Shown one piece after another: positions 3,020-28,982 of a stretch of 64,000 nucleotides of DNA (its first letter is position 1; every line of letters begins with the position of its first letter). The translations under genes and the position numbers were made by a program. Location of the stretch: contig NZ_LVYV01000009.1 in NCBI RefSeq assembly GCF_001618955.1, positions 1-64,000 on the forward strand, read 5' to 3'. The DNA is from Tardiphaga robiniae. Its GTDB lineage: Bacteria > Pseudomonadota > Alphaproteobacteria > Rhizobiales > Xanthobacteraceae. Under the pieces are notes generated by a model. That model saw nothing but the letters and a program-made list of their open reading frames with translations. It made no database searches and was not told the DNA's origin.

Positions 3020-3033
3020 TTTGAAGCTTAAAG
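3020..3033 (+). promoter_or_regulatory. Regulon site A (palindrome overlapping promoter of the SsuBC-like ABC operon)
   Basis: TTTGAAGCTTAAAG fits the window consensus YTTKARGNYTAAAA in 13 of 14 positions (final G for A). It overlaps a promoter: TTGCCC (3007-3012), 16-bp spacer, TAAAGT (3029-3034). The same TTG-N16-TAAARY layout with the same palindrome is found before 11658, 18209 and 29032. The start codon lies 75 bp downstream (96 bp if ATG 3130 is used). Confidence 0.6.
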
Positions 3034-3108
3034 TAATTGCAGTTTCCGGCTAGGCTGCGTCCGTCAGCATGATGGACACAGTCGGGCCGTCGTGATTGCA
3101 ATGCGTGC

Positions 3109-3975
3109 ATGGCAAATGAAGGACCGGGAATGCAGGTGGTGTCGCTACGTTCGGACGCTCACGCCGAGTCGGACCCTCTGTCCGGCCGCAAACCCGCTTC
3201 AGCCATGATCGAGATCGAGCACGTCTCGCAGCGCTTCCAGACCTCCGGCAAGCAAAGCCATCTGGCGCTGTCGGATATCAACCTCACCATCGAAGACGGC
3301 GCCTTCGTCTCGATCCTCGGCCCGTCGGGCTGCGGCAAGTCGACCTTGCTCTATATCGTCGGTGGCTTCGTGCAGCCCACCGATGGCGTTGCCAAGGTGA
3401 AGGGCAAGGCGATCACGGGACCGGGTCCCGATCGCGGTCCGGTGTTTCAGGAATTCGCGCTGTTTCCGTGGAAGAACGTGCTCGGCAATGTCATGTATGG
3501 CCTGCGCCAGCAGGGCGTGAAGAAGGCTGAAGCGGAAGCGCGCGGCCGCAAGCTCCTGGAAATGGTCGGCCTCAAGGGCTACGAGAATTTCTATCCGAAA
3601 GAACTCTCCGGCGGCATGAAGCAGCGCGTCGCCATCGCGCGCACGCTGGCCTATGATCCCGCCGTGCTGCTGATGGACGAGCCATTCGGCGCACTTGATG
3701 CGCATACCCGCACACGGCTGCAGAACGACCTGCTCGACATCTGGGATCGCCAGCGCAAGACCGTGCTGTTCGTCACGCATTCGGTCGAGGAAGCGGTCTA
3801 TCTGTCCGACAAGGTGATCGTGATGTCGCGATCACCGGGCTCGATCAAGGAGATCGTCGATATCGATCTGCCGCGGCCGCGCAAGCGCGCCGATCTCTTG
3901 CTCGATGCGCGTTTCCAGAAATACATCGTCGATATCGAGAAGATGATCGACGACGGCGGCAAGGACGATCTGTGA
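3109..3975 (+). CDS. ABC transporter ATP-binding protein, SsuB/TauB/NrtD type
   Basis: 288-residue ATPase of a nitrate/sulfonate/taurine-type importer. Walker A GPSGCGKS is at 71-78, the signature LSGGM at 166-170 and Walker B ending MDEP near 189-192, with the switch His in FVTHS. A tail after about residue 245 (RPRKRADLL) is typical of this subgroup. The first 33 residues are not part of the ABC fold; ATG 3130 has a better ribosome site (AAGGA) and is an alternative start. It overlaps the permease gene by 4 bp (ATGA). Its promoter carries regulon site A, so it probably imports a substrate or relative of the downstream aromatic pathway. Confidence 0.9.
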   Translation: MANEGPGMQVVSLRSDAHAESDPLSGRKPASAMIEIEHVSQRFQTSGKQSHLALSDINLTIEDGAFVSILGPSGCGKSTLLYIVGGFVQPTDGVAKVKGKAITGPGPDRGPVFQEFALFPWKNVLGNVMYGLRQQGVKKAEAEARGRKLLEMVGLKGYENFYPKELSGGMKQRVAIARTLAYDPAVLLMDEPFGALDAHTRTRLQNDLLDIWDRQRKTVLFVTHSVEEAVYLSDKVIVMSRSPGSIKEIVDIDLPRPRKRADLLLDARFQKYIVDIEKMIDDGGKDDL

Positions 3976-4757
3976 TGACTGCGCGCGGCGTGCTGAAGAC
4001 ATTGTCGCCGCTGTTCGCCTGCATCGGCTTGCTGTGTGTCTGGCAGGTTGCGTCGTTGCGGCTCGATACCGAAAGCTTTCCGACCGCGCTGGAGGCGATC
4101 AAGGCCATTCCATCGATTCTCGGGGACAAGGGATCGTTGCTGAACATCCTCGACTCCATCCGTCGTATGGCTATCGGCCTCGTGCTCGCGGTGATGTTTT
4201 CAATCCCGCTCGGTCTGCTGATGGGGCGCATCAAGGCCGTGGCGTCGTTCTTCAATCCGCTGATGATGATCATCTATCCGGTGCCAAAAGCAGCGCTGAT
4301 GCCCATCATCATGCTGTGGATGGGCGTTGGCGACGTCTCCAAGATCCTCGTCATCTTCCTCGGCGTCAGCCTGCCGATCATCTATCATGCCTTCCAGGGC
4401 TCCAAGGCCGTCGAAGAAAAGATGCTGTGGTCGGGGGCGGCGATGGGCATGTCGGCGCCAATGCGCATGCTCCGCATCGTGCTGCCCGCAGCGCTGCCTG
4501 AAATTCTCACCGGCTGCCGCACCGGTCTGGTGCTGGCATTGATCACGATGATCACCTCGGAGATGATCGCGCGCCAGTCCGGTGCCGGCAACATCCTGTT
4601 CAACTCGCTCGACATGGCGCAATACGATACGGTGTTTGCGATGATCCTGATCATCGGCGCCATGGGCATCGTGTTCGATGCGGCGTTCGAGAAGCTTCGC
4701 CTGTCGCTGGTACGCTGGTCGCAGCCGCGCGACGACATGCCTCTCAGCTTTACGTGA
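3972..4757 (+). CDS. ABC transporter permease, SsuC/TauC type
   Basis: 261-residue inner-membrane permease with about six hydrophobic segments and the BPD_transp_1 coupling loop around residues 150-185 (EEKMLWSGAAMGMSAPMRM, then AALPEI). It belongs to the sulfonate/taurine/nitrate permease family. It is coupled to the ATPase gene by a 4-bp overlap and is followed 7 bp later by a second, different permease, so the importer probably works as a permease heterodimer. No periplasmic binding protein gene is nearby. Confidence 0.88.
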   Translation: MMTARGVLKTLSPLFACIGLLCVWQVASLRLDTESFPTALEAIKAIPSILGDKGSLLNILDSIRRMAIGLVLAVMFSIPLGLLMGRIKAVASFFNPLMMIIYPVPKAALMPIIMLWMGVGDVSKILVIFLGVSLPIIYHAFQGSKAVEEKMLWSGAAMGMSAPMRMLRIVLPAALPEILTGCRTGLVLALITMITSEMIARQSGAGNILFNSLDMAQYDTVFAMILIIGAMGIVFDAAFEKLRLSLVRWSQPRDDMPLSFT

Positions 4758-4764
4758 GCGCAAC

Positions 4765-5529
4765 ATGAACCAGGAACGCATCAATTCGGTTCTGCTGGGC
4801 ATCACGCCGATCGTGCTGTTCATCGCGCTGTGGCAGTCGCTGATCTCCTTCGGCTTCGCACCGACGAGCTTGTTGCCGCCGCCGGGCGCGGTGTTTGGAA
4901 AGCTCGCGAAGGACTTCTTCAACGGCGACTTTCTGCACGACATCGCCGCGACGCTGATCCGGCTGTTCGCCGGCTTCGGCATCGCCGTGGTCGTCGGCGT
5001 GTTCATTGGCCTTGCGGCGGCGGTGAGCCCGGCGGTCAATGCCGTGGTCAAGCCGCTGGTGCGGGTGCTGGCGCCGATCCCGAAGATCGCGCTCTATCCC
5101 GCGCTGTTGCTGATCCTCGGCTTCGATCACGCGTCCAAGATCACGCTGGTGACTGCCGACGCGCTGTTTCCGATCCTGCTGTCGACCTATTACGGCGCGT
5201 CGATGGTTGAGCAGAAGCTGATCTGGTCGGCCATGGCGGCGGGCACGCCGCGCTGGCAGATCCTGTTCAAGGTCGTGCTGCCGGCCGCGATGCCGTCGAT
5301 CCTCACCGGCTGCCGCATCGGCCTCGTGATCTCCTGCATCGTGGTGTTCCTCGCCGAGATGATCACCTCGACCGACGGCCTCGGTCACATGCTGGTGCAG
5401 GCCGCGCGCACGTTCCAGACCGTGGACATGTTTGTGCCGCTGATCATGATCTCGATGCTCGGCCTGATCCTGAACAGCCTGCTGCACTGGCTGCGCAGCT
5501 ATCTGCTGAGGGGCTTCCCGGAAGTATGA
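4765..5529 (+). CDS. Second ABC transporter permease, SsuC/TauC type
   Basis: 254-residue permease with N-terminal and central membrane segments and the family coupling loop (EQKLIWSAMAAGTPRW then AAMPSILTG). Start ATG 4765 gives MNQERINSVLL; an in-frame upstream ATG at 4678 lies inside the previous gene and gives an Arg-rich extension, so it was rejected. It is the last gene of the ABC operon and is followed by a REP palindrome. It pairs with the permease upstream. Confidence 0.88.
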   Translation: MNQERINSVLLGITPIVLFIALWQSLISFGFAPTSLLPPPGAVFGKLAKDFFNGDFLHDIAATLIRLFAGFGIAVVVGVFIGLAAAVSPAVNAVVKPLVRVLAPIPKIALYPALLLILGFDHASKITLVTADALFPILLSTYYGASMVEQKLIWSAMAAGTPRWQILFKVVLPAAMPSILTGCRIGLVISCIVVFLAEMITSTDGLGHMLVQAARTFQTVDMFVPLIMISMLGLILNSLLHWLRSYLLRGFPEV

Positions 5530-5579
5530 AGTATAGAGGCAGCTCTGCCGCTATTACTCGCTAGCCTTTATAACTAAAA

Positions 5580-5669
5580 CTCGTCATGGCCGGGCTTGAC
5601 CCGGCCATCCAACTGTCTTCGGCATTTGCGGCAAAGATGGCTGCCCGGGTCAAGCCCGGGCATGACGAG
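5580..5669. repeat. REP-type palindrome (class 1)
   Basis: The arms CTCGTCATGGCCGGGC... and ...GCCCGGGCATGACGAG are nearly complementary, and each arm contains its own short palindrome around CGGGCTTGACCCGG. The element lies between the convergent ends of the ABC operon and the minus-strand catabolic operon. A close relative is at 17988-18071. Such elements are common between genes in Bradyrhizobium-type genomes and may also act as transcript end points. Confidence 0.8.
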
Positions 5670-5687
5670 AGAGTAGAGCGCGGTGCC

Positions 5688-6671
5688 TCAAAGCACCGGC
5701 GGCTTCTGCAACTGGAAGTGCTTCAGCAAATCCACAAACGCCGATAGCCGACCCTCGCGATAGGCATCGACATCGAGCCCCTCGTAATTGAGAAAGCCTT
5801 CGCCGGTCTTCAGGCCGATCTTGCCCTCGGCCATGTTGCGGCCGACGATCTCCGGCGATGCATAGCGATCGTTGTTCAACGCGCCGGTCAGATACTTGCT
5901 GGCGTAGTACAGAATATCGCCGCCGCCCCAATCGACGAATTCGAGCAGGCCCAGCACTGCGAAGCGGAATCCAAAACCGTACTTGATCGCCTTGTCGATA
6001 TCCTCGGGGCTCGCAACGCCTTCCTCGACCATGCGCGCGGCTTCGTTCATGGCCATCGCCTGGATACGCGGTACGATATAGCCGGGCGTCGCGGCGCAAA
6101 CCACCGGCACCTTGCCGATGCCTTCGAGCATCTCCTTCACCCGCGCGGTGATTGCCGGATCGGTCTTGGCACCGGGCGAGATCTCGACCAGCGGCACGAG
6201 ATAGGCCGGGTTGAGCCAATGCGCGTTGAGAAAACGCTCTGGATGCTCGACGGCGCCGGAGATGTCGTCGACGAGAATGGTCGATGTAGTCGAAGCGATG
6301 ATCGGCGAGGGGCCGGCAAGCTTCGATGCACGTGCCAGCGCATCGCACTTCTGGTCGAGCACCTCAGGCACGCCCTCGAAAATAATCGCCGAGCTGCTCA
6401 GCGCGGCGCCGGCGCCTGCTTCCGGCACGACGCTGACGCGCGACACCAGCGTCTCGATGTCGGCCTCGGTGAGCAGGCCGAAGCGCGCCATGCTGGCGAA
6501 GGTCTTGCGGATCTCGCCAAGTGCTTCGGCTTCCAGCGCCTTGAACTTGTCGGCCTCGCGCGCCTTGAAATCAACGATGGCGACATTGTGCCCTGCATAG
6601 GCAAAAGCAACAGCAATGCCGCGGCCCATGCGACCTGCGCCGAGACAGGCGATGGCGGGACGGGCGCTCAT
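5688..6671 (-). CDS. 3-hydroxyacyl-CoA dehydrogenase family protein
   Basis: 327-residue NAD-dependent dehydrogenase of the 3-hydroxyacyl-CoA dehydrogenase / lambda-crystallin family. The Rossmann motif GAGRMGRG is at 11-18, with acidic Asp34 at the end of the second strand (NAD preference). The catalytic His151 and Asn154 are seen in AHWLNP, followed by the C-terminal helical domain. Its expected role is to oxidise a 3-hydroxyacyl-CoA formed after ring hydration. It is the last gene of a minus-strand operon (hydrolase, acyl-CoA dehydrogenase-like, CoA ligase, opine-type dehydrogenase, this gene) and overlaps the preceding gene by ATGA. Confidence 0.88.
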   Translation of the reverse strand: MSARPAIACLGAGRMGRGIAVAFAYAGHNVAIVDFKAREADKFKALEAEALGEIRKTFASMARFGLLTEADIETLVSRVSVVPEAGAGAALSSSAIIFEGVPEVLDQKCDALARASKLAGPSPIIASTTSTILVDDISGAVEHPERFLNAHWLNPAYLVPLVEISPGAKTDPAITARVKEMLEGIGKVPVVCAATPGYIVPRIQAMAMNEAARMVEEGVASPEDIDKAIKYGFGFRFAVLGLLEFVDWGGGDILYYASKYLTGALNNDRYASPEIVGRNMAEGKIGLKTGEGFLNYEGLDVDAYREGRLSAFVDLLKHFQLQKPPVL

Positions 6672-9297: not shown

Positions 9298-9299
9298 GA

Positions 9300-11407: not shown

Positions 11408-11473
11408 GCATAGGCCTCCTGTGCTGTCGGACAAGGTGATCCTAGCATGTCCGAGATATATGAAAAGCGATAG

Positions 11474-11487
11474 TTTTAGACTTAAAG
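11474..11487 (-). promoter_or_regulatory. Regulon site B (toward the minus-strand catabolic operon)
   Basis: Read on the minus strand, CTTTAAGTCTAAAA is a full match to the consensus YTTKARGNYTAAAA. It lies 67 bp upstream of the hydrolase start. No good TTG -35 box is visible at a 16-bp spacing on this strand, so the promoter assignment is weaker than for sites A, C, E and F. Confidence 0.55.
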
Positions 11488-11608
11488 GGTTGTGGATTGC
11501 CTCATCCGGAGGCACGTCGTTGTTAGAGGTTGGGTCTCCGGGTGATGGATCCTGCGCCTGCCGCTTGGCGATGTTGTGATGTTCGGCCATCGCCCTTGTC
11601 CGAAACTT

Positions 11609-11622
11609 CTTTAGGTTTAAAA
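11609..11622 (+). promoter_or_regulatory. Regulon site C (promoter of the acyl-CoA dehydrogenase gene)
   Basis: CTTTAGGTTTAAAA is a full consensus match. The promoter read here is TTGTCC (11596-11601), 16-bp spacer, TAAAAC (11618-11623), 34 bp before the start codon at 11658. Together with site B it forms a divergent control region of about 250 bp. Confidence 0.62.
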
Positions 11623-11657
11623 CAATGTCGATTGCCGATGCATCGAGGGAGGAAGCC

Positions 11658-12830: not shown

Positions 12831-12837
12831 GCGGAAA

Positions 12838-14484: not shown

Positions 14485-14934
14485 CTAGTCGTTGGCTTCC
14501 GGCGGCAGGAAGTTTACTTCATGCTCGGCAGAGACGCGGACGATGGCTTCGATATCGCTCATATTGTGCAGTTGCTTGAACAGGGCTTCGAGCTTCTGCG
14601 TCGGCGAGACCCAGAACAGTGCGCGGGCAGGTTTGTCCGACTTGTTGAAATAGCCATGCGGAATGCCGCGGGGCAGGCGGACCAGGTCGCCGGCATGGGC
14701 GCGGACCCACTGGCCGTCCAGCTTGAGGTCGAGCACGCCTTCCTGCACCAGGATGAATTCTTCCTGGGTCGGATGGATATGCACCGGCACGAACTGGCCG
14801 GGATCGCTGTTGGTCTCGAAGGCAAAGGTGGAGTCGGTCACGGCCTTTGGAAAATAGACCTGCCCGAGAATATTCCACGTGGTGCCCCCATATCCGGTGC
14901 CGTTCTGGGTGATGCCTTTTTCAAGTGCCGCCAT
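14485..14934 (-). CDS. Cupin-domain protein (paralogue of the one at 22043)
   Basis: 149-residue single-domain cupin. The first cupin motif is HIHPTQEEF with metal-binding His and Glu; the second is GDLVRLPRGIPHGYF with the last metal His. A C-terminal helix (LFKQLHNMSDIEAI) follows. Such proteins are dioxygenases, isomerases or non-enzymatic binding proteins; the activity is unknown. ATG 14934 gives MAALEKGITQNG with GGGAG upstream; upstream extension to 15021 has no ribosome site. The two cupins share TWNILGQ, IHP, DLVRL and RGIPHG and flank the core pathway genes, implying related roles. Confidence 0.8.
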   Translation of the reverse strand: MAALEKGITQNGTGYGGTTWNILGQVYFPKAVTDSTFAFETNSDPGQFVPVHIHPTQEEFILVQEGVLDLKLDGQWVRAHAGDLVRLPRGIPHGYFNKSDKPARALFWVSPTQKLEALFKQLHNMSDIEAIVRVSAEHEVNFLPPEAND

Positions 14935-15066
14935 GGTCCTGCTCCCTTGGGTTTCACGTCCGCAAGGATGCTGCGTGACCTCGGGGCCTGTCTCTAGCCG
15001 TTGAACGAATCCGCTATCCAAACGACGAAATAATTACCGGTAGGGGGAGGGGCGCAGGCGCGTTGC

Positions 15067-15116: not shown

Positions 15117-15169
15117 ACGGCAATATTTACAGCGGGGCGCCGACTATGCGGCGTGACGGGACATGGATA

Positions 15170-15183
15170 GTCTAGGCTTCAAA
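15170..15183 (+). promoter_or_regulatory. Weak regulon-like site H before the AraC gene
   Basis: GTCTAGGCTTCAAA matches YTTKARGNYTAAAA at 11 of 14 positions and is located 19 bp before the AraC start. It shares the CTTCAAA end with the reverse strand of site A. It may be a degenerate member of the set or chance. Confidence 0.3.
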
Positions 15184-15202
15184 TAACGCAGGCGATCGGA
15201 CC

Positions 15203-16231
15203 ATGGTGTTGGACGCAGCCGTATCAGGGAATGCCCAGCCGGTCCGCGCCGCAAGGCTTGCGGCATTCTCTCGCGTTTTCACCAGGGATATCGACGAGGC
15301 TGCCGACTCGATCGGGCGCATCTTCTGTCCGCATGCGCTGGATCCCTTGCAGCGCTCATGGCCGGATTTTCATGCGCTCCACAATTGCGCGGCGTTCGAT
15401 GGCTTCTCGGTAAACTACGTCTCCTATGGCGGTTCGGTATCGATCGACCCCGGCTGTCTCGACCGCTTCTTCCTGTTGCAGATCCCGCTGCATGGCGGTG
15501 CCCGGATCAGTACCGGCGGCCGGACGATCGAGGTCTCGGCAGGGCGTTCCGCGTCCTTGCTCTCGCCGACAATGCCTACAAAGATGGTCTGGCAGGACGA
15601 TTGCGCAAAATTGATCCTGCTGGTTGAACGACGGCTCGTCGAGGAGCGCGCGGCGGCGCTGGCGGAGAGATCCGGAGCGGTCATTGAGTTTGATCCGGAG
15701 GTCGATCTCAATACGCCGTTCGGTCTCGCGATCCGGTCCCAGATCGAATATCTCGTCGATCTCGCGGAGCATCGTGGGCCGGGGCAGCGGATCTCGCCAA
15801 TGATGGCGGCGACCCTGCGTGACTCCGTGATTGGACTGTTGCTGACCGGTCAGCGACATACGCTCACCGACACCATCGATCGCTCCCTCGCGCGCCTTGG
15901 TCCGCTGCCTTCAGTGCTGAGAAAGGCACGGGACTATCTTGAGGCTCATGCCACTGATTCGCTCGATCTCGATCGGCTCGCTCGCGCAGCTGGCATCGGG
16001 ATACGTTCGCTGCAGCTCGGCTTCCAGAAGCATTTCGGCATGTCGATTTCCGATGCGCTGCTGGATATCCGGCTGACGCATTTGAATGCACGGCTGCTGC
16101 GGGCTGTGCCGGGCGAGCGTGTCATCGATATGGCGTTCGATCTCGGCTTCACCCATCCGAGCCGGATGGCCAGCTTCTACCGCGCCCGTTACGGCGAGAG
16201 CCCGTCGGATACGCTCCGCCGTAGCCGCTAG
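15203..16231 (+). CDS. AraC-family transcriptional regulator
   Basis: 342-residue regulator with an N-terminal cupin-like ligand domain (about 20-210, AraC_binding_2 type as in the XylS/FeaR group) and a C-terminal double HTH (about 235-340), with LDRLARAAGIGIRSLQLGFQ as the first HTH and VIDMAFDLGFTHPSRMASFY as the second. Proteins of this group typically activate aromatic or amine catabolic genes. It sits between the divergent cupin/FMO genes and the SDR-hydratase genes, so it may add a second layer of control to the pathway. ATG 15203 is taken as the start. Confidence 0.88.
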   Translation: MVLDAAVSGNAQPVRAARLAAFSRVFTRDIDEAADSIGRIFCPHALDPLQRSWPDFHALHNCAAFDGFSVNYVSYGGSVSIDPGCLDRFFLLQIPLHGGARISTGGRTIEVSAGRSASLLSPTMPTKMVWQDDCAKLILLVERRLVEERAAALAERSGAVIEFDPEVDLNTPFGLAIRSQIEYLVDLAEHRGPGQRISPMMAATLRDSVIGLLLTGQRHTLTDTIDRSLARLGPLPSVLRKARDYLEAHATDSLDLDRLARAAGIGIRSLQLGFQKHFGMSISDALLDIRLTHLNARLLRAVPGERVIDMAFDLGFTHPSRMASFYRARYGESPSDTLRRSR

Positions 16232-16260
16232 CAGCATGGCCTGCCTGTTTCTTGCAAAAG

Positions 16261-16274
16261 CTTGAAGTCTAAAA
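16261..16274 (+). promoter_or_regulatory. Regulon site D (before the SDR-hydratase operon)
   Basis: CTTGAAGTCTAAAA is a full match to the consensus and ends 43 bp before the SDR start. A -10 TAAAAT (16270-16275) is plausible; the -35 at 16 bp (TTTCTT) is poor. Confidence 0.58.
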
Positions 16275-16317
16275 TAATATCCAGACAGGCTCATGGAGAG
16301 CCTGCGGAAGGTGACGC

Positions 16318-18071: not shown

Positions 18072-18161
18072 AGAGTTTCAACAGGTCGCCTCGCGCCGAT
18101 TGACAATTTGATGTGCATCAAAGCTGCCGAATTGCCGGTTTGTCAGGCTTGCCAGGAATTG

Positions 18162-18175
18162 TTTTAGGTTTAAAA
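18162..18175 (+). promoter_or_regulatory. Regulon site E (promoter of the monooxygenase/reductase gene)
   Basis: TTTTAGGTTTAAAA is a full consensus match overlapping the promoter TTGCCA (18149-18154), 16-bp spacer, TAAAAT (18171-18176). The start codon is 33 bp beyond the -10. Confidence 0.65.
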
Positions 18176-18208
18176 TATCTCCATCCAGGCACGACTGCGG
18201 AGGCTGTC

Positions 18209-20560
18209 ATGAAGATCGCGATTATCGGTGGCGGGCCGGCGGGCCTCTATTCTGCGATCCTGCTGAAGAAGCAGCGGCCGCAGGCAGAGATCACGGTTTA
18301 TGAGCGCAACCGTCCTGACGACACCTTCGGCTTCGGTGTGGTGTTCTCCGACGCCACCCTCGATAATTTCGAGAAATACGATCTTCCGAGCTATCAGCGC
18401 ATCACCCAGGAATTCGCTTACTGGGACGATATCGCCGTGCACTTCCGCGGCACTGTCCATCGCGTCGGCGGCAACGGCTTCTGCGGCTGTTCGCGCCGCA
18501 CGCTGCTGATGATCCTGCAGGACCGGGCTCGCGAACTCGGTGTTCATCTGCTGTTCGAAGTCGATATCACCGACGAAGCACGTTTCGCCGATGCCGATCT
18601 GATCGTGCTGGCTGACGGCATCAACAGCCACTTCCGCAACAAGTATATCGAACACTTCGCGCCCGAAGTAGATTTGCGCTCGAACAAGTTCACCTGGATG
18701 GGTTCAACCAAGCCGCTCGATGCTTTCACCTTCCTGTTCCAGGAAACCGAGTGGGGGCCGTTCATTGCGCACGCCTATCAGTATGAGGCTGGCCGCTCGA
18801 CCTGGATCTTCGAGACCGATCCGGAGACCTTCAAGCGCGCCGGCCTCGAAGGCCTCGGCGAGCAGGAATCCGCTGATCGCATGCACGATATCTTCAAGGG
18901 CTTCCTTGGCGACCACAAGCTGTTGATCAACCGCTCGATGTGGCGCAATTTTCCGATGATCCGCAACAAGCGCTGGGTCAAGGACAACATGGTGCTGCTT
19001 GGCGACGCCAAGGCGACCGCGCATTTCTCTATCGGTTCGGGCACCAAGCTGGCCATGGAAGATGCCATCGCACTGTATGATGCAATGGCGAAGGCACCGA
19101 CCGTCGAGGCCGCGCTGCATGACTATGAACACGGTCGCCGCGAGGAGGTCGAGAAGATCCAGCATTCGGCGGACGTGTCGCTGGTCTGGTTCGAGCACGT
19201 GGATCGCTTTTGGGACTTTGACCCCGTGCAGTTCGCTTTCGGCGTCATGACCCGTGCCAAGGCGATTACCTACGATAACCTGACGCTGCGCGCGCCGGAC
19301 TTCGTCAAGGAAGTCGACAAGTCGTTTGCGCAGAAGGTGCAGGCGCAGGGCTTCGACGTCGATGTCGATAAGCCGGAAGTGCCGATGTTCCAGCCGTTCA
19401 AGATGCGGGATATGGTGCTTGCCAATCGCGCCGTAGTGTCGCCGATGTGCATGTATTCGGCGGAAGAGGGTGTGCCGAACGATTTCCATCTGGTGCATTA
19501 TGGCTCGCGTGCCATTGGCGGCGCCGGTCTCGTCTTCACCGAAATGGTCTGCGTCGGCCGTGACGCACGCATCACCCCCGGCTGTGCTGGTCTGTGGACC
19601 GACGAGCAGGAAGCGCAATGGAAACGCATCGTCGATTTTGTGCATAGCACGTCGGCTGCGAAGATCTGTCTGCAGCTCGGCCATGCCGGTCGCAAGGGTG
19701 CGACCAAGCTGATGTGGGACGGCATGGACCGCCCGCTCGCCGATGGCGCTTGGGACATCGTGTCGGCGTCGCCGCTGCCGTATTATCCGGATAGTCAGGT
19801 GCCCGCAGAGATCGACCGTGCGGCCATGGATCGCGTCAAGGCAGAGTTCGTGGCCGCCACGATCCGCGGCGAGCGCTGTGGCTTCGACATGCTCGAGATG
19901 CACACGGCGCACGGCTATCTACTGGCGAGTTTCCTGTCGCCGCTGACCAACAAGCGCACCGATGAATATGGTGGCTCCCTTGAGAACCGGCTGCGCTTCC
20001 CCCTCGAAGTGTTCGAGGCCATGCGTGCGGCCTGGCCGGCGCATAAGCCGATGTCGGTTCGCTTCTCGGCGACCGATTGGGCCGAAGGTGGCAACACCGG
20101 CGACGACGCGGTGCAGATTGCCCGCGCCTTCGCCGAGGCTGGCGTCGATCTCGCCGATATCTCGACAGGGCAAACCGTCAAGGAGTCACGGCCGATCTAC
20201 GGCCGTATGTTCCAGACGCCGTTCTCGGATCAGGTCCGCAACGAGGCGCGCGTCGCCACCATGTGCGTCGGCAACATCACGTCAGCGGATCAGGTCAACA
20301 CGATCCTGGCCGCCGGCCGCGCGGATCTCGTCGCGCTCGGCCGTCCGCACCTGACTGACCCGTCCTTCACCATCAAGGCGGCGGCCTGGTATGGTGCAAA
20401 GGACGCCTATTGCCCGCCACAATATATGCCCGGCAAGGACCAGATTTTCCGCAACAGCGTCAGGGACAAGCAGGATTTCGAAGACCTGAAAATTAAGGCT
20501 AAGCCGAAGACCCGCGCCGAGATGCGGGCGGAGGCCGCTAAGCCACTTGCAGCTGAATGA
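18209..20560 (+). CDS. 2-aminobenzoyl-CoA monooxygenase/reductase (salicylyl-CoA 5-hydroxylase type, bifunctional)
   Basis: 783-residue fusion. Residues 1 to about 380 are an aromatic-ring flavin monooxygenase (FAD motif GGGPAG at 7-12, [16 protein letters not shown] as the FAD ribityl motif). From about 393 an old-yellow-enzyme-like flavin reductase follows ([18 protein letters not shown], catalytic [25 protein letters not shown]). This architecture is known from Azoarcus evansii, where it hydroxylates and then reduces 2-aminobenzoyl-CoA to a non-aromatic cyclohexenone-CoA. Genome pipelines name homologues salicylyl-CoA 5-hydroxylase/oxidoreductase, so salicylyl-CoA is the alternative substrate. 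ATG 18209 follows GGAGG. This is the key enzyme of the region and lies alone under regulon site E. Confidence 0.9.
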
Positions 20561-20588
20561 CTGGGCATGCGAGTTTATTGATCACAAT

Positions 20589-20671: not shown

Positions 20672-20697
20672 GCATTGTATCGAGTGGAGTTGAGCTG

Positions 20698-21948: not shown

Positions 21949-21981
21949 TCCAACCGCTACATGCGCGATCAAGTTGATACG

Positions 21982-22010
21982 AAAATGGCCGGGCAGAGCC
22001 CGGCCATTTT
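21982..22010. terminator. Bidirectional intrinsic terminator
   Basis: A 13-bp stem AAAATGGCCGGGC (21982-21994) and GCCCGGCCATTTT (21998-22010) with a 3-base loop lies between the convergent stops at 21948 and 22043. The A and T ends serve both strands. Confidence 0.8.
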
Positions 22011-22042
22011 GCGTCGATGTCTGTAGCTAATAGCGCCGCGCC

Positions 22043-22498
22043 TTACGCGCCGGGAGGCGGCGGCAGGAAATGGATGTTGTATTCGGCGGCGAGCGCCACA
22101 ACGTCCTCGGGCTTCTGCTCTTTCATGTTGTGGATCGCCCAGAACAGATCATAGAGCCGGCGGCTTGGCGAGACCCAGAACAGCACCTTGGCGTTCTGAT
22201 CGGACTTGTTGAAGATGCCGTGCGGAATGCCGCGCTGCAGGCGCACGAGATCGCCCGGCGTGGCCGAAGTTTCGGAGCCGCCGAGGAAGAAGTCGAGCTT
22301 GCCTTCGAGGATGTAGAGATACTCATCCTGGTCGGGATGGATGTGCGGCGGCACGAAGGTGCCGGGCGGGAAAGTGGCGTGCCACGAGAACGAATCCTCG
22401 CTGCAGTTCTTCGGCACATAGGTCTGGCCGAGGATGTTCCAGGTGATGCCCTGCATGCCTTCATTGGCGCGGGTGATGCCGGCGATCTCGGTCTTCAT
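22043..22498 (-). CDS. Cupin-domain protein (paralogue of the one at 14485)
   Basis: 151-residue single cupin. Metal motif PHIHPDQDEYLYILEG and second motif GDLVRLQRGIPHGIF; the tail ends HFLPPPPGA. It closely follows the sequence pattern of the 14485 cupin, including TWNILGQ near the N-terminus and VLFWVSP after the second motif. The activity is unknown; cupins of this size include quercetinase-like dioxygenases and lyases. It lies downstream of the liv-type operon's opposite end, 60 bp from livF, in the same direction but upstream of no other gene, so it is probably transcribed with the transporter operon or from its own promoter. Confidence 0.8.
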   Translation of the reverse strand: MKTEIAGITRANEGMQGITWNILGQTYVPKNCSEDSFSWHATFPPGTFVPPHIHPDQDEYLYILEGKLDFFLGGSETSATPGDLVRLQRGIPHGIFNKSDQNAKVLFWVSPSRRLYDLFWAIHNMKEQKPEDVVALAAEYNIHFLPPPPGA

Positions 22499-22558
22499 GG
22501 TTGGTCCTTCCTTGGGTCACGCATTACGACGCATCGGGTGGTACTCGAAAACAGTTGA

Positions 22559-23256
22559 TCAAACGTGGAGGAAACGGTCCTTCACGGTGGAGTCGCTCTT
22601 CAGTTGCTCGGATGTGCCGGTCCACACCACGCGGCCCTTTTCGATCACCACGTGGCGATCGGCGAAGCCGGCCAGCGCATCGACATTCTTGTCGATCACG
22701 AGAATGGACTGATGCTCGGCTTTGAGCTTCTTCAGGCAATTCCAGATTTCGAGGCGAATGAGCGGCGCGAGGCCTTCGGTGGCCTCATCGAGAATGAGCA
22801 GTTTCGGATTGGTCATCAGCGCCCGGCCGACCGCTAGCATTTGTTGCTCGCCGCCCGACAATTGCGTGCCGAGATTGCTGCGGCGTTCCTTGAGACGCGG
22901 AAACAGCTCGTAGATTTTGTCCAGCGTCCAGCGCGCCGGCGGATGGCGCACGGCGGCCGTGGCGATCAGGTTCTCTTCCACGGTGAGCGTCGGGAAGATC
23001 TGGCGACCTTCCGGCACGAGGCCAATGCCCGCCTGGGCGATACGATAGGACGGCAAACCGGTCATCGGCTTGTCGTCGAAGGTGACGGTGCCACCGGTGG
23101 GATGGATCAGGCCCATGATGGCGTTGATGGTGGTCGTCTTGCCCATGCCGTTGCGACCGAGCAGGGTAACGACTTCACCGGCATTGATGGTGAGCGAGAT
23201 ATCGAACAGCACCTTGGCCGCGCCATAGGCGGCCTGGAGATTTGAGACTGAGAGCA

Positions 23257-23257
<1 letters not shown>
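22559..23257 (-). CDS. Branched-chain-type ABC transporter ATP-binding protein (LivF type)
   Basis: 232-residue ATPase, the shorter of the two in Liv-type importers. Walker A GRNGMGKT, signature LSGGEQQ, Walker B LLILDEATEGL. It is coupled to the LivG-type gene by a TGATG overlap. The operon order from the promoter is binding protein, LivH, LivM, LivG, LivF. Liv-type systems next to aromatic acid CoA ligases commonly import aromatic acids rather than amino acids, so anthranilate or a related acid is the inferred cargo. Confidence 0.9.
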
Positions 23258-24005
<748 letters not shown>

Positions 24006-24009
<4 letters not shown>

Positions 24010-24995
24010 GACTTGCTCCCGAACAGGCCGGTGATGCCGCCGCGAGCATAGAGCACAACGAGGATCAGGATGGGTCCAAAAATCAAAGCCCAGTTCTCGG
24101 TGTAATGCGACAGGATATCCGCCAGCAGGCTGAATACGGCCGCGCCGATGATTGCGCCATGCAGCGAGCCGAGGCCGCCAAGGACCAGCACGAAAATCAG
24201 GTCGCCCGAGCGCTGCCAGGCCGTATAGGCCGGGCTGACGAATTCGGTCTGGTTGGCGAGCAGAAAGCCCGACACGCCGGCGATCATACCGGCGATAACA
24301 TAGGCCGTGAGCTGATAGCGATAGGGCGCAAAGCCGATCGCTTCCATCCGTACCGGGTTCTCACGGATGCCGCGCAGTACCCGGCCGAAGCGCGACGCAA
24401 CGATGGCACGCAGCAATAGATAAGCGCCGAGCAGCACGCCGAAGGCGACGTAATACATCGCCACGTCGTTCTTCATGAACTTTGAGCCGAAGAACATGCT
24501 GCGCGACGCCAGCGTCAGGCCGTCGTCCCCGCCATAGGCGGCCAGCGAGGTGCCGAGGAAGAACAGCATCTGGCCGAACGCCAGCGTGATCATGATGAAA
24601 TAGACGCCCTTGGTCCGCAGCGATATCGCGCCCGTGAAAAAAGCGAAGATGAGCGAGACACTAAGCGCAACCGCGAGCTGGATGAAGCCATCGGTGATTC
24701 CATGGCTGGCAAGGATCGCGACGCTATAGGCGCCGAGGCCGACATAGGCGGCATGGCCGAACGAGATCATTGCGCCGTAGCCGATCAGCAGATCGAGCGA
24801 CATGGCGGCGAGCGCCAGGATCATGATGCGCGTGACCAGCGCCAGGATGAAGCTCTGCGATCCCCACAGCACCGAGAGCGGCACAAGGGCGAAGATCGCG
24901 AAAACGATTAGCGGCAGCAGATAGGCGCGGTTGGCACGCCGAGGCGTTGCGAGGGCCGGCGAAGCGTGGGCGTCGAGGTCGACGAGATTGTTCAT
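24006..24995 (-). CDS. Branched-chain-type ABC transporter permease (LivM type)
   Basis: 329-residue inner-membrane permease with about eight to ten hydrophobic segments; the motif GYGAMISFGHAAYVGLGAY is typical of LivM. A hydrophilic N-terminus of about 22 residues precedes the first segment. It forms the translocation pore with the LivH-type subunit, whose stop lies 12 bp upstream. Confidence 0.9.
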
Positions 24996-25007
24996 GGTCT
25001 GCTCCCG

Positions 25008-25928
25008 TTACTGCTTGGACGGGAACAGGCCGGATGGCCGGAAGAACAGCACCGCAGCCATCAGGATATAGATCAGCATCGGCGCAATGGCGCGGCCGGT
25101 CTGGCTGGCCGCCGAGGGATCGAGCAGCAGCTTGAGCAGCGTGGGCGCAAAGAAACGTCCGAGCGTATCAACGAGACCGATCAGCAGGGCGGCGATGAAG
25201 GCGCCGCGGATCGAGCCGATGCCGCCGATGACGATCACCACGAAAGCAAGAATGAGCACGTTGTCACCCATGCCGGGCTCGACCGAGAGGATCGGTGCGA
25301 CCATGGCGCCGGCGAAGCCCGCGAGCATGGCGCCGACGCCGAACACGATGGTGAACAGCAGGCGAATGTTGACTCCGAGCGCGGAGACCATAGCAGCGTT
25401 GCTGGCGCCGGCACGCACGAGCATGCCGAGCTTGGTCTTGTTGACGACGAGATAGAGCGCGAGGCCGACAGCAAGACCGACGGCGATGATGACGAGACGC
25501 CACACCGGATAGAGCATGCCGTCGGTGATCTCGATCGCGCCCGACAGTGCATCGGGAATTGCGACGTTCAGCGGCGCGGCGCCCCAGACATACTTGACGG
25601 CCTGATTCAGGAAGATGATGACGCCAAAGGTTGCAAGCACCTGATCCAGATGGTCGCGATCATATAGATGTCGAAAGATCAGGACCTCCAGTACGAGCCC
25701 AAAGATCAGTGCGGCGGGCAGTGCCAGCGCGAGGCCGGCGACGAAACTGCCGGTCATGGCGGTGAAGGCGGCGACCAGATAGGCGCCGACCATGTACTGC
25801 ACGCCATGCGCAAGATTGATGAAGTCCATGACGCCGAACACCAGCGTCAGGCCGGCGGCGATCAGGAACAGGATCAATCCAAACTGCAGGCCGTTCAGGA
25901 TCTGGACGAGGGCAAGCGTGAGGGTCAT
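25008..25928 (-). CDS. Branched-chain-type ABC transporter permease (LivH type)
   Basis: 306-residue permease; the N-terminal LNGLQFGLILFLIAAGLTL and MDFINLAHG segments are characteristic of LivH. About eight membrane segments follow. It is separated from the binding-protein gene by 102 bp that hold a stable hairpin, an arrangement that commonly lowers permease expression relative to the binding protein. Confidence 0.9.
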   Translation of the reverse strand: MTLTLALVQILNGLQFGLILFLIAAGLTLVFGVMDFINLAHGVQYMVGAYLVAAFTAMTGSFVAGLALALPAALIFGLVLEVLIFRHLYDRDHLDQVLATFGVIIFLNQAVKYVWGAAPLNVAIPDALSGAIEITDGMLYPVWRLVIIAVGLAVGLALYLVVNKTKLGMLVRAGASNAAMVSALGVNIRLLFTIVFGVGAMLAGFAGAMVAPILSVEPGMGDNVLILAFVVIVIGGIGSIRGAFIAALLIGLVDTLGRFFAPTLLKLLLDPSAASQTGRAIAPMLIYILMAAVLFFRPSGLFPSKQ

Positions 25929-25973
25929 CAGATAACTTGGTTTCTATACTGAGATAAACACGGGCAGATAAAA

Positions 25974-26010
25974 CACCGGGCCGTCCCGCCTTCGCGGCAA
26001 CGGCCCGGTG
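25974..26010 (-). terminator. Hairpin between binding-protein and permease genes (attenuator-like)
   Basis: Stem CACCGGGCCGT (25974-25984) and ACGGCCCGGTG (26000-26010) enclose a smaller CCGC-CTTC-GCGG hairpin. It begins 21 bp after the binding-protein stop. It lacks a T run on the minus strand, so partial termination or protection of the upstream mRNA is more likely than full termination. Confidence 0.65.
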
Positions 26011-26030
26011 ATGACTGATCGCCAGGGCGA

Positions 26031-27206
26031 TTACTGCGCGGCGCAGTCCTTGGCGTAGCGATCGCCGTAGTTCGAGAACACCTTCTCGACGATCTCGGTC
26101 TGGAACTTGCCGTCAGCGCGCTTGGCGACCTTGGTCAGGAAGAAGTCCTGAACGGGATAGCCGTTGTTGCTGAACTTGAAGCTGCCGCGGATCGACGGGA
26201 AGTCGGCCTTCTTCATAGCCGCGGCCACCTTGGCCTTGTCCGAGAGATCACCCTTCACGGCAACAACGGCGCTGTTGATCAGCATCGCTGCGTCATAGGA
26301 CTGGAAGGCGTAGGTCGCCGGCACGCTGTTATAGGCCTTCTCGTATTCCGCGACGAACTTCTTGTTCTGTGCGGTGTCGAGGGTGGGTGCCCAGTTCGAG
26401 CCACCGAACATGCCGATCGCGGCGTCCTGCTGAGCCGGCAGCGTCGATTCATCGACGGTGAAGGTCGACAGGAACGGGATGCGGTCGAGCAGGCCGGCCT
26501 GCTTGTACTGCTTGACGAGGTTCACGCCCATGCCGCCGGGCATGAAGGTGAGAACAGCGTCAGGCTTCATCGATGCGATCTTGGAGAGCTCAGCCTGGAA
26601 ATCCAGCGTGCCGAGCGGGATGAAAGACTCTTCGAGAATCTCGCCCTTGAAGTCCATCTTCACGCCGGCGACGAAGTCCTTGCCGGCCTGATAGTTCGGG
26701 GTCATCAGGTAGATCTTCTTGTAGCCGCGCTTCTGGGCGACGTTACCGAGTATCTGGTGGATCTGGTCGTTCTGATACGATGTCACATAGAAGTACGGAT
26801 TGCACTCCTTGCCGGCGTAGCTCGACGGGCCGGCATTCGGCGAGATCAGGAAGGTCTTGTTCTCGGTGACCGGCTTGTGGATCGCGCCCAGGATGTTGGA
26901 AAAGATCGGGCCGACCACGAAGTCGACCTTGTCGCGCTCCAGAAGGCCTTTGACCTTAGTGACAGCGACGTCGGGCTTGAGTTCGTCATCGATGACGATG
27001 ACCTCGACGTCCTTGCCGCCCATCTTGCCGCCGAGATCCTTGACCGCGAGATTGAAGCCGTCGCGGGCCTGCTGGCCGAGCACGGCACCGGCGCCCGACA
27101 GCGACACGATCACGCCGACCTTGATCTTTTCCTGCGCCATGGCCGGGATGGCCGAAACGCTCATCATCAGGGCGGCCAAACCGGCCAATTTGAGAGACTG
27201 CTTCAT
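26031..27206 (-). CDS. Branched-chain-type ABC transporter substrate-binding protein
   Basis: 391-residue periplasmic binding protein (Peripla_BP_6, type I fold). Signal peptide 1-24 with cleavage at AMA-QEK. The segment VGVIVSLSGAGAVLGQQ and the FNLAVKDLGG helix are typical of the family. ATG 27206 follows GGAGGAGAAG; an extension to 27254 has no ribosome site. First gene of the importer operon, with regulon site G 169 bp upstream. Paralogues of a different subgroup are at 39040 and 40432. Aromatic acid binding is inferred from context. Confidence 0.88.
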   Translation of the reverse strand: MKQSLKLAGLAALMMSVSAIPAMAQEKIKVGVIVSLSGAGAVLGQQARDGFNLAVKDLGGKMGGKDVEVIVIDDELKPDVAVTKVKGLLERDKVDFVVGPIFSNILGAIHKPVTENKTFLISPNAGPSSYAGKECNPYFYVTSYQNDQIHQILGNVAQKRGYKKIYLMTPNYQAGKDFVAGVKMDFKGEILEESFIPLGTLDFQAELSKIASMKPDAVLTFMPGGMGVNLVKQYKQAGLLDRIPFLSTFTVDESTLPAQQDAAIGMFGGSNWAPTLDTAQNKKFVAEYEKAYNSVPATYAFQSYDAAMLINSAVVAVKGDLSDKAKVAAAMKKADFPSIRGSFKFSNNGYPVQDFFLTKVAKRADGKFQTEIVEKVFSNYGDRYAKDCAAQ

Positions 27207-27545
27207 TAACTTCTCCTCCACTCGGCCGCGACAGGCAGCCGAAAAACGTGCCAACCCAGAATTCTGTTCTTTTGCCTAGATTATGCTCACGACGGGCGCA
27301 GCCGCAAGCAATGTAAATGACTTCCAGGCGTCAGAAATCAGCCGAATACGCTATGCAAACCGTAGGCCAATTTATTTGAACCTTAAAGAAATATTCAAAA
27401 TCGACGGCGGTCAAGTCTGCGGCGTTTTGGCTTGCGGTCGGACGGAAATTCCTTGAAGGTCAAAGGATCGGTATGGGGCGGTACGAGATTGTGGATTGCC
27501 GGTCTCTCGGCCGCCGCAGGAGCTTCAAGCAGGTAAGATTGCATC
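27207..27545. other. 339-bp divergent intergenic region, importer operon / MarR gene
   Basis: It holds one regulon site (G, 27375-27388) in an AT-rich stretch. No other dyad, RNA gene or open frame of note is seen. The half close to the MarR gene is GC-rich and has no copy of the motif. Confidence 0.6.
27375..27388 (-). promoter_or_regulatory. Regulon site G (toward the Liv-type importer)
   Basis: Read on the minus strand, CTTTAAGGTTCAAA matches the consensus at 13 of 14 positions (C for A at position 11). It lies 169 bp upstream of the binding-protein start, so a long leader or a second promoter is implied. Confidence 0.5.
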
Positions 27546-28052
27546 ATGATTCTCGATTCCGAGACCAAGGCCGTCGAACTTCCCGATGATCACGGCGATG
27601 AGCTGCGCCTGTGGCTCCGGCTCCTGACCTGTACGACGTTGATCGAGGGTGAAGTCCGCAGCCGCTTGCGCGAACGCTTCGATGTCACGCTCCCGCGCTT
27701 CGATCTGATGGCCCAGCTCGACAAAGTGCCCGACGGTATGACCCTGTCGGATGTCTCGAAGCGGATGATGGTGTCGAACGGCAACGTGACCGGCCTGGTC
27801 GAGCGTCTTGTCGAATCCGGCCACGTCGATCGCCGCACCTCCGACACCGATCGTCGGGTGCAGGTGATCCGGCTCACCAAACTCGGCCGCGCCGAGTTCC
27901 GCAAGATGGCCGAAGAACACGAGACCTGGATCGCCGAAATCTTCAGCGATCTGGCGCCGAAGGATGTCCGCGAGCTGATGCGTTTGCTGGCCAAGACCAA
28001 GGCTTCCGCGCAGAAGGCGGCGCAAAAGGCAGCGAACGGAAAAGCGCCGTAA
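27546..28052 (+). CDS. MarR-family transcriptional regulator
   Basis: 168-residue MarR protein: N-terminal dimer helix, winged HTH at about 60-115 (MTLSDVSKRMMVSNGNVTGL then RRTSDTDRRVQVIRLT wing), C-terminal dimer helix with a Lys/Ala-rich tail. MarR proteins in CoA-dependent aromatic pathways (BadR, CouR, HcaR types) usually repress and are released by an aromatic acyl-CoA or acid. It sits at the centre of the genes sharing the palindromic motif and is therefore the first candidate to bind it. It appears to be translated with the arylformamidase-like gene 10 bp downstream. Confidence 0.9.
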   Translation: MILDSETKAVELPDDHGDELRLWLRLLTCTTLIEGEVRSRLRERFDVTLPRFDLMAQLDKVPDGMTLSDVSKRMMVSNGNVTGLVERLVESGHVDRRTSDTDRRVQVIRLTKLGRAEFRKMAEEHETWIAEIFSDLAPKDVRELMRLLAKTKASAQKAAQKAANGKAP

Positions 28053-28062
28053 ACGCGACGCG

Positions 28063-28881
28063 GTGAGTGCAGTGATCGATCTCGAAGCCGAATACAACAA
28101 TCGCGCAAAAGTCCCGGAAAGCTCTGTGCTGATCGCTGGCTGGGCACAGGACGCCAAAGCCTATCGCTACAGCTTCCAGGGCAAGCGCGTTATTCCCTAT
28201 GGCACCGGTGCGCGCCACAACATCGATTACTTTCCGGCCGGGGGGGAAGGTCCGATCGTCGTCTTCATTCATGGTGGCTATTGGCAGGCGCTGGACGCCT
28301 CGTTCTTCAGCCATCTGGCGCGGGGGCTGAATAGCCATGGCATCAGCGTGGCGATCCCCAGCTACGATTTGTGTCCGAACGTCTCGGTCGGCGACATCAT
28401 TGTGCAGATGCGTGCGGCGACCCGCGAACTGGCAAAGCTTGGTCGGCGGCTTGTCGTGTCGGGGCATTCCGCGGGCGGTCATCTCGCCGCCTGCATGCTG
28501 GCGACGGATTGGCGCGCGCTCGATTCCGCGCTGCCGCAGGACCTGATTGTTGGTGCTTATGCGATCTCCGGCCTGTTCGATCTGGGGCCGCTGGTGCCGA
28601 CGTCGATCAACAATGCATTGCATTTGAACGATGCCGGCGCTCGTGGGGTGAGTCCGCTTTACTGGCCTGCGCCATTGCGTGGCTGTCTCGATGCGGTCGT
28701 CGGCGGCGATGAGGGCGCCGAGTACTTCCGGCAGAGCCAAAGTATCGTCGATGCCTGGGGTGCCCATATTCCCACGCGCTTCGAGGCGCTTCCCGGCGCA
28801 AATCATTTTACCGCCGTCGCGCCGATGTCCGATCCGCAGTCCGCCATGGTGCTGCGTCTGAAGGCGCTGGCCACGCTTTAG
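28063..28881 (+). CDS. Alpha/beta hydrolase, arylformamidase (kynurenine formamidase)-like
   Basis: 272-residue alpha/beta hydrolase. Oxyanion motif HGGYW at 70-74 and nucleophile Ser136 in GHSAGGH; catalytic His near the end in GANHFTAV. HGGYW, then YDLCP about 30 residues on, then GHSAG matches the layout of animal-type kynurenine formamidases. That reaction turns N-formylkynurenine into kynurenine, one step from anthranilate, so the gene may feed the anthranilate route from a tryptophan-derived or N-formyl precursor. The start is GTG 28063, 10 bp after the MarR stop. Alternative: a general carboxylesterase. Confidence 0.78.
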   Translation: MSAVIDLEAEYNNRAKVPESSVLIAGWAQDAKAYRYSFQGKRVIPYGTGARHNIDYFPAGGEGPIVVFIHGGYWQALDASFFSHLARGLNSHGISVAIPSYDLCPNVSVGDIIVQMRAATRELAKLGRRLVVSGHSAGGHLAACMLATDWRALDSALPQDLIVGAYAISGLFDLGPLVPTSINNALHLNDAGARGVSPLYWPAPLRGCLDAVVGGDEGAEYFRQSQSIVDAWGAHIPTRFEALPGANHFTAVAPMSDPQSAMVLRLKALATL

Positions 28882-28968
28882 GCGCGGTTGCCTAAACAAA
28901 CTGCGCAAATCGACGTTGTCAGCCGAAAATTTCGGCGTGCCGCAGGACTCCGTAGTTGCGGAAAACTG

Positions 28969-28982
28969 TTTTAAGTCTAAAA
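28969..28982 (+). promoter_or_regulatory. Regulon site F (promoter of the CoA ligase-RidA operon)
   Basis: TTTTAAGTCTAAAA is a full consensus match overlapping the promoter TTGCGG (28956-28961), 16-bp spacer, TAAAAT (28978-28983), 49 bp before the ligase start. Confidence 0.65.

What the first reader, a model, noticed from the sequence alone, without database searches (positions are those of the whole stretch)
3020..28982. One palindromic motif shared by seven promoters/upstream regions across 26 kb: a probable MarR regulon for aminobenzoyl-CoA catabolism
The 14-mers at 3020, 11474(-), 11609, 16261, 18162, 28969 and 27375(-) read in the direction of transcription as YTTKARGNYTAAAA, an imperfect palindrome (TTTARR-YYTAAA). 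Sites B-F match at every position and A and G at 13 of 14. Four of them (A, C, E, F) sit at the same place in a TTG-N16-TAAARY promoter, so a bound protein would block RNA polymerase. The genes controlled are both importers, both CoA-pathway operons, the monooxygenase/reductase and the ligase. The MarR gene at 27546 is the only MarR in the region. Its own promoter shows no copy, so it may be unregulated or use another route. The -10 bases are partly shared with any promoter; the left half (YTTKARG) is what argues for an operator.
Basis: partly seen in the sequence, partly recalled or inferred. Interest (0 to 1): 0.82.

Follow-up and report, generated by a model that had tools for sequence, protein, structure and literature searches.

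The report
MarR repressor regulon for anthranilate catabolism
A soil bacterium's genes for taking up and breaking down an aromatic amine acid (probably anthranilate, via its coenzyme A ester) share one palindromic DNA switch, very probably bound by the MarR-type regulator encoded among them, and the same regulator-and-switch pair recurs in related bacteria; the kind of system is familiar, but I found no description of this one.

Summary
Five 14-mers match exactly and two at 13 of 14; window shuffles give 0.00 exact and 0.13 at one mismatch or fewer. In the 6.36 Mb genome, 5 of the 7 exact places lie in this cluster.

A 24-bp palindrome, about AATTaTTTTAAGCTTAAAATaATT, sits before operon heads and almost never before internal genes in 80 relatives. 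In 198 family genomes, 32 of 32 with a close MarR have the exact 14-mer, against 15 of 96 with no MarR match. Of 289 Alphaproteobacteria, 47 have both the MarR and the monooxygenase/reductase, 5 and 6 only one. Operators persist where the cluster is rearranged, where the AraC gene is missing, and in 3 of 3 examined loci with acmR on another contig than marR.

Corrections: marR does have a copy nearby, weak but conserved (27452). Site D lies in its own promoter's spacer. B is the weakest site. A and G are not significant by the 14-mer alone.

Most likely a repressor released by a pathway CoA ester; binding and ligand are untested. New member of a known kind.

The parts
3015..3038 (+). Operator A (core 3020-3033), upstream of the ABC importer genes 3109-5529
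   Evidence: 13/14 to the 14-mer; 35.0 bits; 8 of 8 same-genus loci holding ssuB with its upstream DNA; 1 mismatch to the 24-mer, one of five genome places with 2 or fewer
11469..11492 (-). Operator B (core 11474-11487), upstream of abh-acd2-lig2-ocd-hadh; weakest of the seven
   Evidence: exact 14-mer but 19.1 bits; 10 of 10 same-genus loci at 13.5-23.1 bits
11604..11627 (+). Operator C (core 11609-11622), upstream of acyl-CoA dehydrogenase acd1
   Evidence: exact 14-mer; 29.8 bits; 10 of 10 same-genus loci
16256..16279 (+). Operator D (core 16261-16274), in the spacer of TTGCAA-N17-TAATAT upstream of sdr-ech
   Evidence: exact; 29.0 bits; 10 of 10 same-genus loci; TTG at the same offset in 42 of 42 distinct sdr promoters with a site
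18157..18180 (+). Operator E (core 18162-18175), upstream of the monooxygenase/reductase acmR
   Evidence: exact; 35.8 bits; 10 of 10 same-genus loci; 54 of 58 relatives at <=1 mismatch
27370..27393 (-). Operator G (core 27375-27388), divergent sbp/marR intergenic region
   Evidence: 13/14; 30.4 bits; at -170 to -175 of marR in 15 of 15 Tardiphaga-type loci read, the window included
27447..27470 (+).
   Evidence: 12.4 bits, eighth-best hit in 64 kb; at -93 to -98, 6.7-17.3 bits, in 15 of 15 Tardiphaga-type loci read, the window included (3 of 18 listed loci were read in the wrong orientation and dropped)
28964..28987 (+). Operator F (core 28969-28982), upstream of ligase lig1
   Evidence: exact; 31.2 bits; 77 of 78 relatives at <=1 mismatch
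15165..15188 (-). Possible weak operator upstream of araC (core 15170-15183)
   Evidence: 7.2 bits in the window, no better than the best hit in the reversed window, 7.4; araC has an upstream site in 8 of 9 relatives
27546..28052 (+). marR: candidate repressor, 168 aa
   Evidence: PF12802 48.4 bits (cut-off 27), PF01047 37.3 (cut-off 24.6); model mean pLDDT 89.3, MarR fold; tblastn of it finds no second MarR in the window (next E 0.72)
18209..20560 (+). acmR: bifunctional CoA-ester monooxygenase/OYE reductase (start set by profile alignment)
   Evidence: NF006101 1126 bits, cut-off 1078
29032..30693 (+). lig1: aryl-CoA ligase, probably anthranilate-CoA ligase
   Evidence: best solved relative 4wv3, anthranilate-CoA ligase, E 5.4e-98; next benzoate-CoA ligase, 8.8e-71
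30727..31185 (+). ridA-like protein
   Evidence: PF01042
16318..17975 (+). sdr and ech
   Evidence: PF00106, PF00378
11658..12830 (+). acd1 acyl-CoA dehydrogenase (start chosen after a GGGAGG)
   Evidence: PF00441
5688..11419 (-). abh, acd2, lig2, ocd, hadh: CoA-pathway genes read leftwards (abh start approximate)
3109..5529 (+). ABC importer: ATPase and two permeases
22559..27254 (-). Liv-type ABC importer with its binding protein sbp (26031-27254)
15203..16231 (+). araC: rival regulator, possibly a target
   Evidence: PF14525, PF12833; 22 of 198 family genomes

Best explanation
The seven sites plus a weak eighth near marR are operators of one regulon controlled by the MarR protein at 27546. 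A MarR dimer binds a 24-bp palindrome, about AATTaTTTTAAGCTTAAAATaATT, lying between or overlapping the -35 and -10 elements, and so keeps RNA polymerase off the importers, the aryl-CoA ligase, the bifunctional monooxygenase/reductase and the ring-degrading CoA operons. A pathway metabolite, most likely 2-aminobenzoyl-CoA or a downstream CoA ester, releases it. marR is probably autoregulated. Shown by computation: the operator, its place at operon heads, its conservation, and the co-occurrence of MarR, acmR and operator. Inferred: that this MarR binds it, repression rather than activation, the ligand, autoregulation, and 2-aminobenzoyl-CoA (not salicylyl-CoA) as substrate.
For: Window and genome counts. 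In the best 80 of 258 confirmed MarR-orthologue loci (1.50 Mb): 394 matches at <=1 mismatch, both strands counted, against 10 in the reversed sequence. Site within 250 bp upstream (<=1 mismatch; a shared divergent region counts for both neighbours): lig1 77/78, acmR 54/58, abh 23/25, sdr 42/59, sbp 57/73, marR 61/80, araC 8/9, acd1 1/1; against 0 for ech 60, ridA 76, cupin 74, orf28063 40, acd2 24, orf32017 9, fmo 8, araC2 8, lig2 8, livF, livG, livM and livH 8 each, ocd 5, hadh 1, orf33033 1, and 1/72 for fadmo. 198 family genomes: exact 14-mer in 32 of 32 with MarR >=83% identical, 23 of 39 at 60-71%, 13 of 31 at 39-58%, 15 of 96 with no match at E<=1e-20. Class: of 289 genomes 47 have both MarR and acmR, 5 MarR only, 6 acmR only, Fisher p 1.6e-41. 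Operator above 15 bits upstream of acmR in 32 of 35 loci (MarR about 60-71%) and 25 of 29 (39-58%), reversed control 0 of 64 (64 of 65 fetched loci scored). Three of three examined acmR genes on another contig than marR keep the operator, at 23.9-32.8 bits. Recognition-helix stretch VSNGNVTGLVER identical in 89 of 140 relatives. Spacer position in predicted promoters. Best structural matches include MarR-family proteins solved with operator DNA.
Against: No binding, expression or ligand data. The loci were found through MarR, so presence of MarR there is by selection; genomes of the different sets overlap and are related, so p-values overstate. In the class, 12 of 26 MarR-positive acmR loci pass 20 bits, 3 lie between 8 and 17, and 11 score below 6. 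G131 has acmR and a 13.3-bit site before it but no MarR match (85% complete). G159, without a MarR match, has 4 exact matches and cluster genes (94% complete). sdr lacks a site in 17 of 59 relatives. In the 39-58% group no perfect 10-bp palindrome is in more than 2 of 29 regions. The reversed control gave 5 hits at abh and 6 at sdr. TTG spacing is not uniform before acmR (23, 17 and 15 of 57 at three offsets) and not seen at a common offset before abh. One MarR paralogue with a different helix (L254) has a 21.1-bit palindrome nearby. araC is present in 20 of the 32 genomes with a close MarR.
Confidence: 0.87

Rival explanations
1. The motif is the operator of the AraC-family regulator at 15203 (or of another regulator encoded in the cluster).
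For: araC lies in the cluster just before site D, a copy precedes araC itself in 8 of 9 relatives, and araC is in 20 of the 32 family genomes with a close MarR.
Against: araC is in 22 of 198 family genomes (E<=1e-60), acmR in 100 (E<=1e-150) and MarR in 102 (E<=1e-20). G155 has no araC match, and in its locus L265 sites stand at all five heads held. A 24-bp symmetric dyad suits a symmetric dimer.
Confidence: 0.04
2. The MarR protein binds these sites as an activator (as recalled for BadR of Rhodopseudomonas palustris, no call), or acts both ways.
For: MarR activators of aromatic catabolism exist (recalled).
Against: The sites lie in the spacer or over the -10 of the predicted promoters, where a bound protein would block polymerase.
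Confidence: 0.07
3. The motif is only a shared core-promoter signature (-10 and flanking AT-rich DNA), not an operator.
For: Four sites share a TTG-N16-TAAARY layout, and the right half overlaps the -10.
Against: Only 2 of 7 exact copies lie elsewhere in the genome; the outer AATT arms are conserved as a dyad that was not imposed; in sdr promoters the motif is in the spacer; the number of copies follows MarR.
Confidence: 0.02

Closest known systems
CouR of Rhodococcus jostii RHA1 (abstract and passages of PMC4737184 seen)
   Same: MarR-type repressor of a CoA-ester catabolic cluster; inverted-repeat operator overlapping promoter elements; released by a pathway CoA ester
   Different: p-hydroxycinnamate pathway; ligand proven there, only inferred here; I did not compare the two sequences
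IadR (MarR_73) and IadR2 (MarR_50) of the Variovorax auxin locus (section 7, outline and passages of PMC9613470 seen)
   Same: MarR repressor of an aromatic catabolic locus; the iad pathway ends in anthranilate, the presumed substrate here
   Different: IadR (7kfo) is a distant relative (E 6.6e-6) and binds indole-3-acetic acid; the paper identified no DNA site or ligand for IadR2
3boq, MarR protein of Silicibacter pomeroyi
   Same: closest solved sequence (E 2.4e-22), same fold
   Different: no function or operator given in the calls

Membership tests
MarR family of transcriptional regulators | MarR winged-helix DNA-binding domain above curated cut-off | tested here: met
   PF12802 48.4 vs 27 and PF01047 37.3 vs 24.6 bits
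MarR family of transcriptional regulators | MarR fold | tested here: met
   monomer model mean pLDDT 89.3; Foldseek matches such as 8ylg, 6jbx and 3boq are MarR proteins
MarR family of transcriptional regulators | Works as a dimer | not tested
   only a monomer was modelled
MarR family of transcriptional regulators | Binds a palindromic operator near its target promoters | tested here: inconclusive
   palindrome at operon heads and co-occurrence with MarR; binding itself not testable here
CoA-thioester-responsive MarR repressors (CouR kind) | Released by an aryl-CoA ester and not by the free acid | not testable with these tools
   no ligand data; inferred from gene content
2-aminobenzoyl-CoA (abm) pathway | Bifunctional monooxygenase/OYE reductase | tested here: met
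   NF006101 above cut-off; that model is named for salicylyl-CoA, so the substrate is not settled
2-aminobenzoyl-CoA (abm) pathway | Anthranilate-CoA ligase | tested here: inconclusive
   closest solved relative is an anthranilate-CoA ligase, 4wv3; activity not testable here

The most novel reading that the evidence does not exclude
This MarR is the dedicated 2-aminobenzoyl-CoA sensor of Alphaproteobacteria: one repressor-operator pair, kept down to about 40-45% protein identity, follows the pathway through rearrangement, unlinking and replacement of the monooxygenase by a variant 51-53% identical, so that regulator and operator are kept while enzymes and importers are exchanged.
Probability: 0.5. 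Interest if true: 0.55.

Novelty: new member of a known kind. Interest (0 to 1): 0.42.

Why it matters
It gives a concrete regulator and operator, recurring through the class, for aerobic CoA-dependent anthranilate breakdown; judging from the listings and passages I saw, no paper in the searched library describes one. It links breakdown products of auxin or tryptophan in soil and root bacteria to a testable switch, and offers a candidate biosensor for an aryl-CoA ester. The operator also gives a way to find further pathway genes and importers by sequence.

Tried and rejected
Backward pattern as a null: it has a higher background (1.30 per genome) than the forward pattern (0.23) in the 96 genomes without a MarR match, so those genomes are the better null. 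Two exact 14-mers elsewhere (contig C12) score 16.5 and 16.7 bits, below all seven window sites (19.1-35.8) though above the marR copy (12.4); one lies between two genes that I take, from the translations and by recall, for tripartite-tricarboxylate receptors; probably chance. AraC as the binder: rejected. The open frame called orf14521 was a control gene (0 of 13) but is probably not a gene (a cupin-like gene lies on the other strand in relatives); it is left out of the counts. Dropped rows: L028, L029 and L033 (wrong orientation); one of 65 loci (script filter), L245 (acmR cut off by the contig end) and L247 (no acmR match in the piece fetched) say nothing. The list of places was capped; its per-genome counts were not. 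A structure was predicted for the fold only. Literature: eight searches; one search matched 25,534 papers and showed 10; only open-licence PMC papers are held.
Full report
Observation. The seven 14-mers are present as described: five exact, two at 13 of 14. Shuffles of the window give 0.00 exact and 0.13 at one mismatch or fewer. In the whole 6.36 Mb genome there are seven exact places, five of them in this cluster; the pattern read backwards has four matches. At one mismatch the 14-mer alone is not specific (35 matches, backward control 62), so sites A and G needed other evidence.

Extended operator. I collected 223 unique 26-mers around hits (one mismatch or fewer) in 73 Bradyrhizobium-type and related loci (L063-L135), leaving out the seven loci nearest the window, and made a symmetric matrix. 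After a one-base-shifted shadow of site G comes 15170 before araC (7.2), no better than the best hit in the reversed window (7.4). A 24-mer pattern, picked after trying three variants on the window, has five genome places with two mismatches or fewer, all in the window, and nine with three, one of them in the window (site C); the backward control has seven places. B falls outside it. The two exact 14-mers outside the cluster reach 16.5 and 16.7 bits.

Position. In the best 80 of 258 loci found by MarR homology, sites stand before first genes of operons and almost never before internal genes (one of 72 for fadmo). A shared divergent region counts for both its genes. In the same count the reversed control gave 5 hits at abh, 6 at sdr and none elsewhere at one mismatch. 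For lig1, TTG lies 13 bases before the site in 76 of 76 distinct promoters; for sdr the motif lies in the spacer of TTGCAA-N17-TATATC, with TTG in place in 42 of 42; before acmR the spacing varies (23, 17 and 15 of 57 at three offsets), and before abh no common offset was seen. In the window the same reading holds for D (TTGCAA-N17-TAATAT). In ten other genomes of the genus, B, C, D and E are kept in 10 of 10 loci (B at 13.5 to 23.1 bits), and A in the 8 of 8 that hold ssuB with its upstream DNA.

marR itself. There is a degenerate one at 27452-27465, 94 bp before the ATG. It is at -93 to -98 in 15 of 15 Tardiphaga-type loci that could be read, at 6.7 to 17.3 bits; one of these is the window itself, and L030 and L057 appear to be one contig. 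In Bradyrhizobium the marR-proximal copies are closer to consensus, such as TTTGAAGCTCAAAA. Autoregulation is therefore likely, not shown.

Which regulator. In 198 family genomes, exact 14-mers occur in 32 of 32 genomes with a MarR at least 83% identical (139 matches), 23 of 39 at 60-71%, 13 of 31 at 39-58%, and 15 of 96 without a MarR match (22 matches). Four of those 22 are in G159, which has cluster genes but no MarR match (94% complete). MarR homologues occur in 102, acmR homologues in 100 and the AraC in 22 of the 198, each at its own threshold; the AraC is in 20 of the 32 genomes with a close MarR. Of 84 MarR matches at 71% identity or less, 60 lie within 5 kb of an acmR homologue. Upstream of acmR the operator passes 15 bits in 32 of 35 loci with MarR at about 60-71% and 25 of 29 at 39-58%; the reversed control passes in 0 of 64 (one of 65 fetched loci was dropped by the script).

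Class level. Of 289 Alphaproteobacteria, the window's genome included, 47 have both MarR and acmR, 5 only MarR, 6 only acmR. Loci were fetched for 30 of the 56 acmR matches. Of the 26 with MarR in the genome (window included), 12 pass 20 bits, 3 lie between 8 and 17, and 11 fall below 6; in 3 of these 11 a ligase gene precedes acmR. The 4 without MarR score -19.4 at best. Whole-locus scans of four MarR-less loci, three of them from the same genomes, gave -6.4 at best. Of the six MarR-less genomes, G261 was not examined. In the family, G131 has acmR and a 13.3-bit site before it, but no MarR match (85% complete).

Separation tests. In three of three genomes examined for this, acmR lies on another contig than marR and still carries the operator, at 32.8, 30.1 and 23.9 bits; the assemblies are drafts, so true distances are unknown. 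In 17 Bradyrhizobium loci the acmR is a variant 51-53% identical, under operators such as TTTTAAGTATAAAA. The helix stretch is VSNGNVTGLVER in 89 of 140 relatives, with graded variants in the rest. Ten paralogues fetched from places away from a full acmR differ from it, and nine of them lack an operator nearby; the tenth (L254) has a 21.1-bit palindrome.

Pathway. The ligase's closest solved relative is an anthranilate-CoA ligase. The monooxygenase/reductase passes the NCBI model named for salicylyl-CoA 5-hydroxylase, a family that, by recall, also takes in 2-aminobenzoyl-CoA monooxygenase/reductase. A RidA-like gene and beta-oxidation-type genes fit 2-aminobenzoyl-CoA better, but the substrate is inferred. 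PMC3534580 (passages) reports anthranilate degradation through these CoA intermediates in Arthrobacter, and PMC2842291 (one passage) names the genes abm.

Mechanism and standing. Operators over the promoter spacer point to repression. By analogy with CouR (PMC4737184, abstract and passages), release by a pathway CoA ester is most likely; this is not tested. Eight literature searches, judged from listings and from passages of four papers, showed no description of this regulator or palindrome in the open-licence library. The system is a new member of a known kind.

Noticed in passing
L089, L098, L099, L102, L105, L107, L109-L111, L113, L115-L120, L122: In these 17 Bradyrhizobium loci acmR, sdr and ech are variants about 51-62% identical to the window's, under the same type of operator; looks like enzyme exchange beneath a kept switch.
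   Followed up: partly
L265:5686 and L266:2608: Two same-genus loci carry a further operator-like site (TTTGAAGCATGAAA, 22.8 and 21.6 bits) at places where no window gene matched; possible extra regulon members.
   Followed up: no
window 14485-15021 (-): In same-genus relatives a gene about 50% identical to the cupin at 22043 lies on the strand opposite the open frame 14521-14997 (+), which is probably not a gene.
   Followed up: partly
window 22559-25928: The Liv-type permease and ATPase genes were matched in 8 of 80 relatives' loci (L056-L062, L121); in many of the others sbp stands next to the cupin gene.
   Followed up: no
L006 (C12:155995): Exact 14-mer between two genes that I take, by recall, for tripartite-tricarboxylate receptors; 16.5 bits, probably chance.
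   Followed up: partly
L254:1571: A MarR paralogue with a different recognition helix has a 21.1-bit palindrome, AAGTTTAGACTTAAAC, nearby.
   Followed up: no
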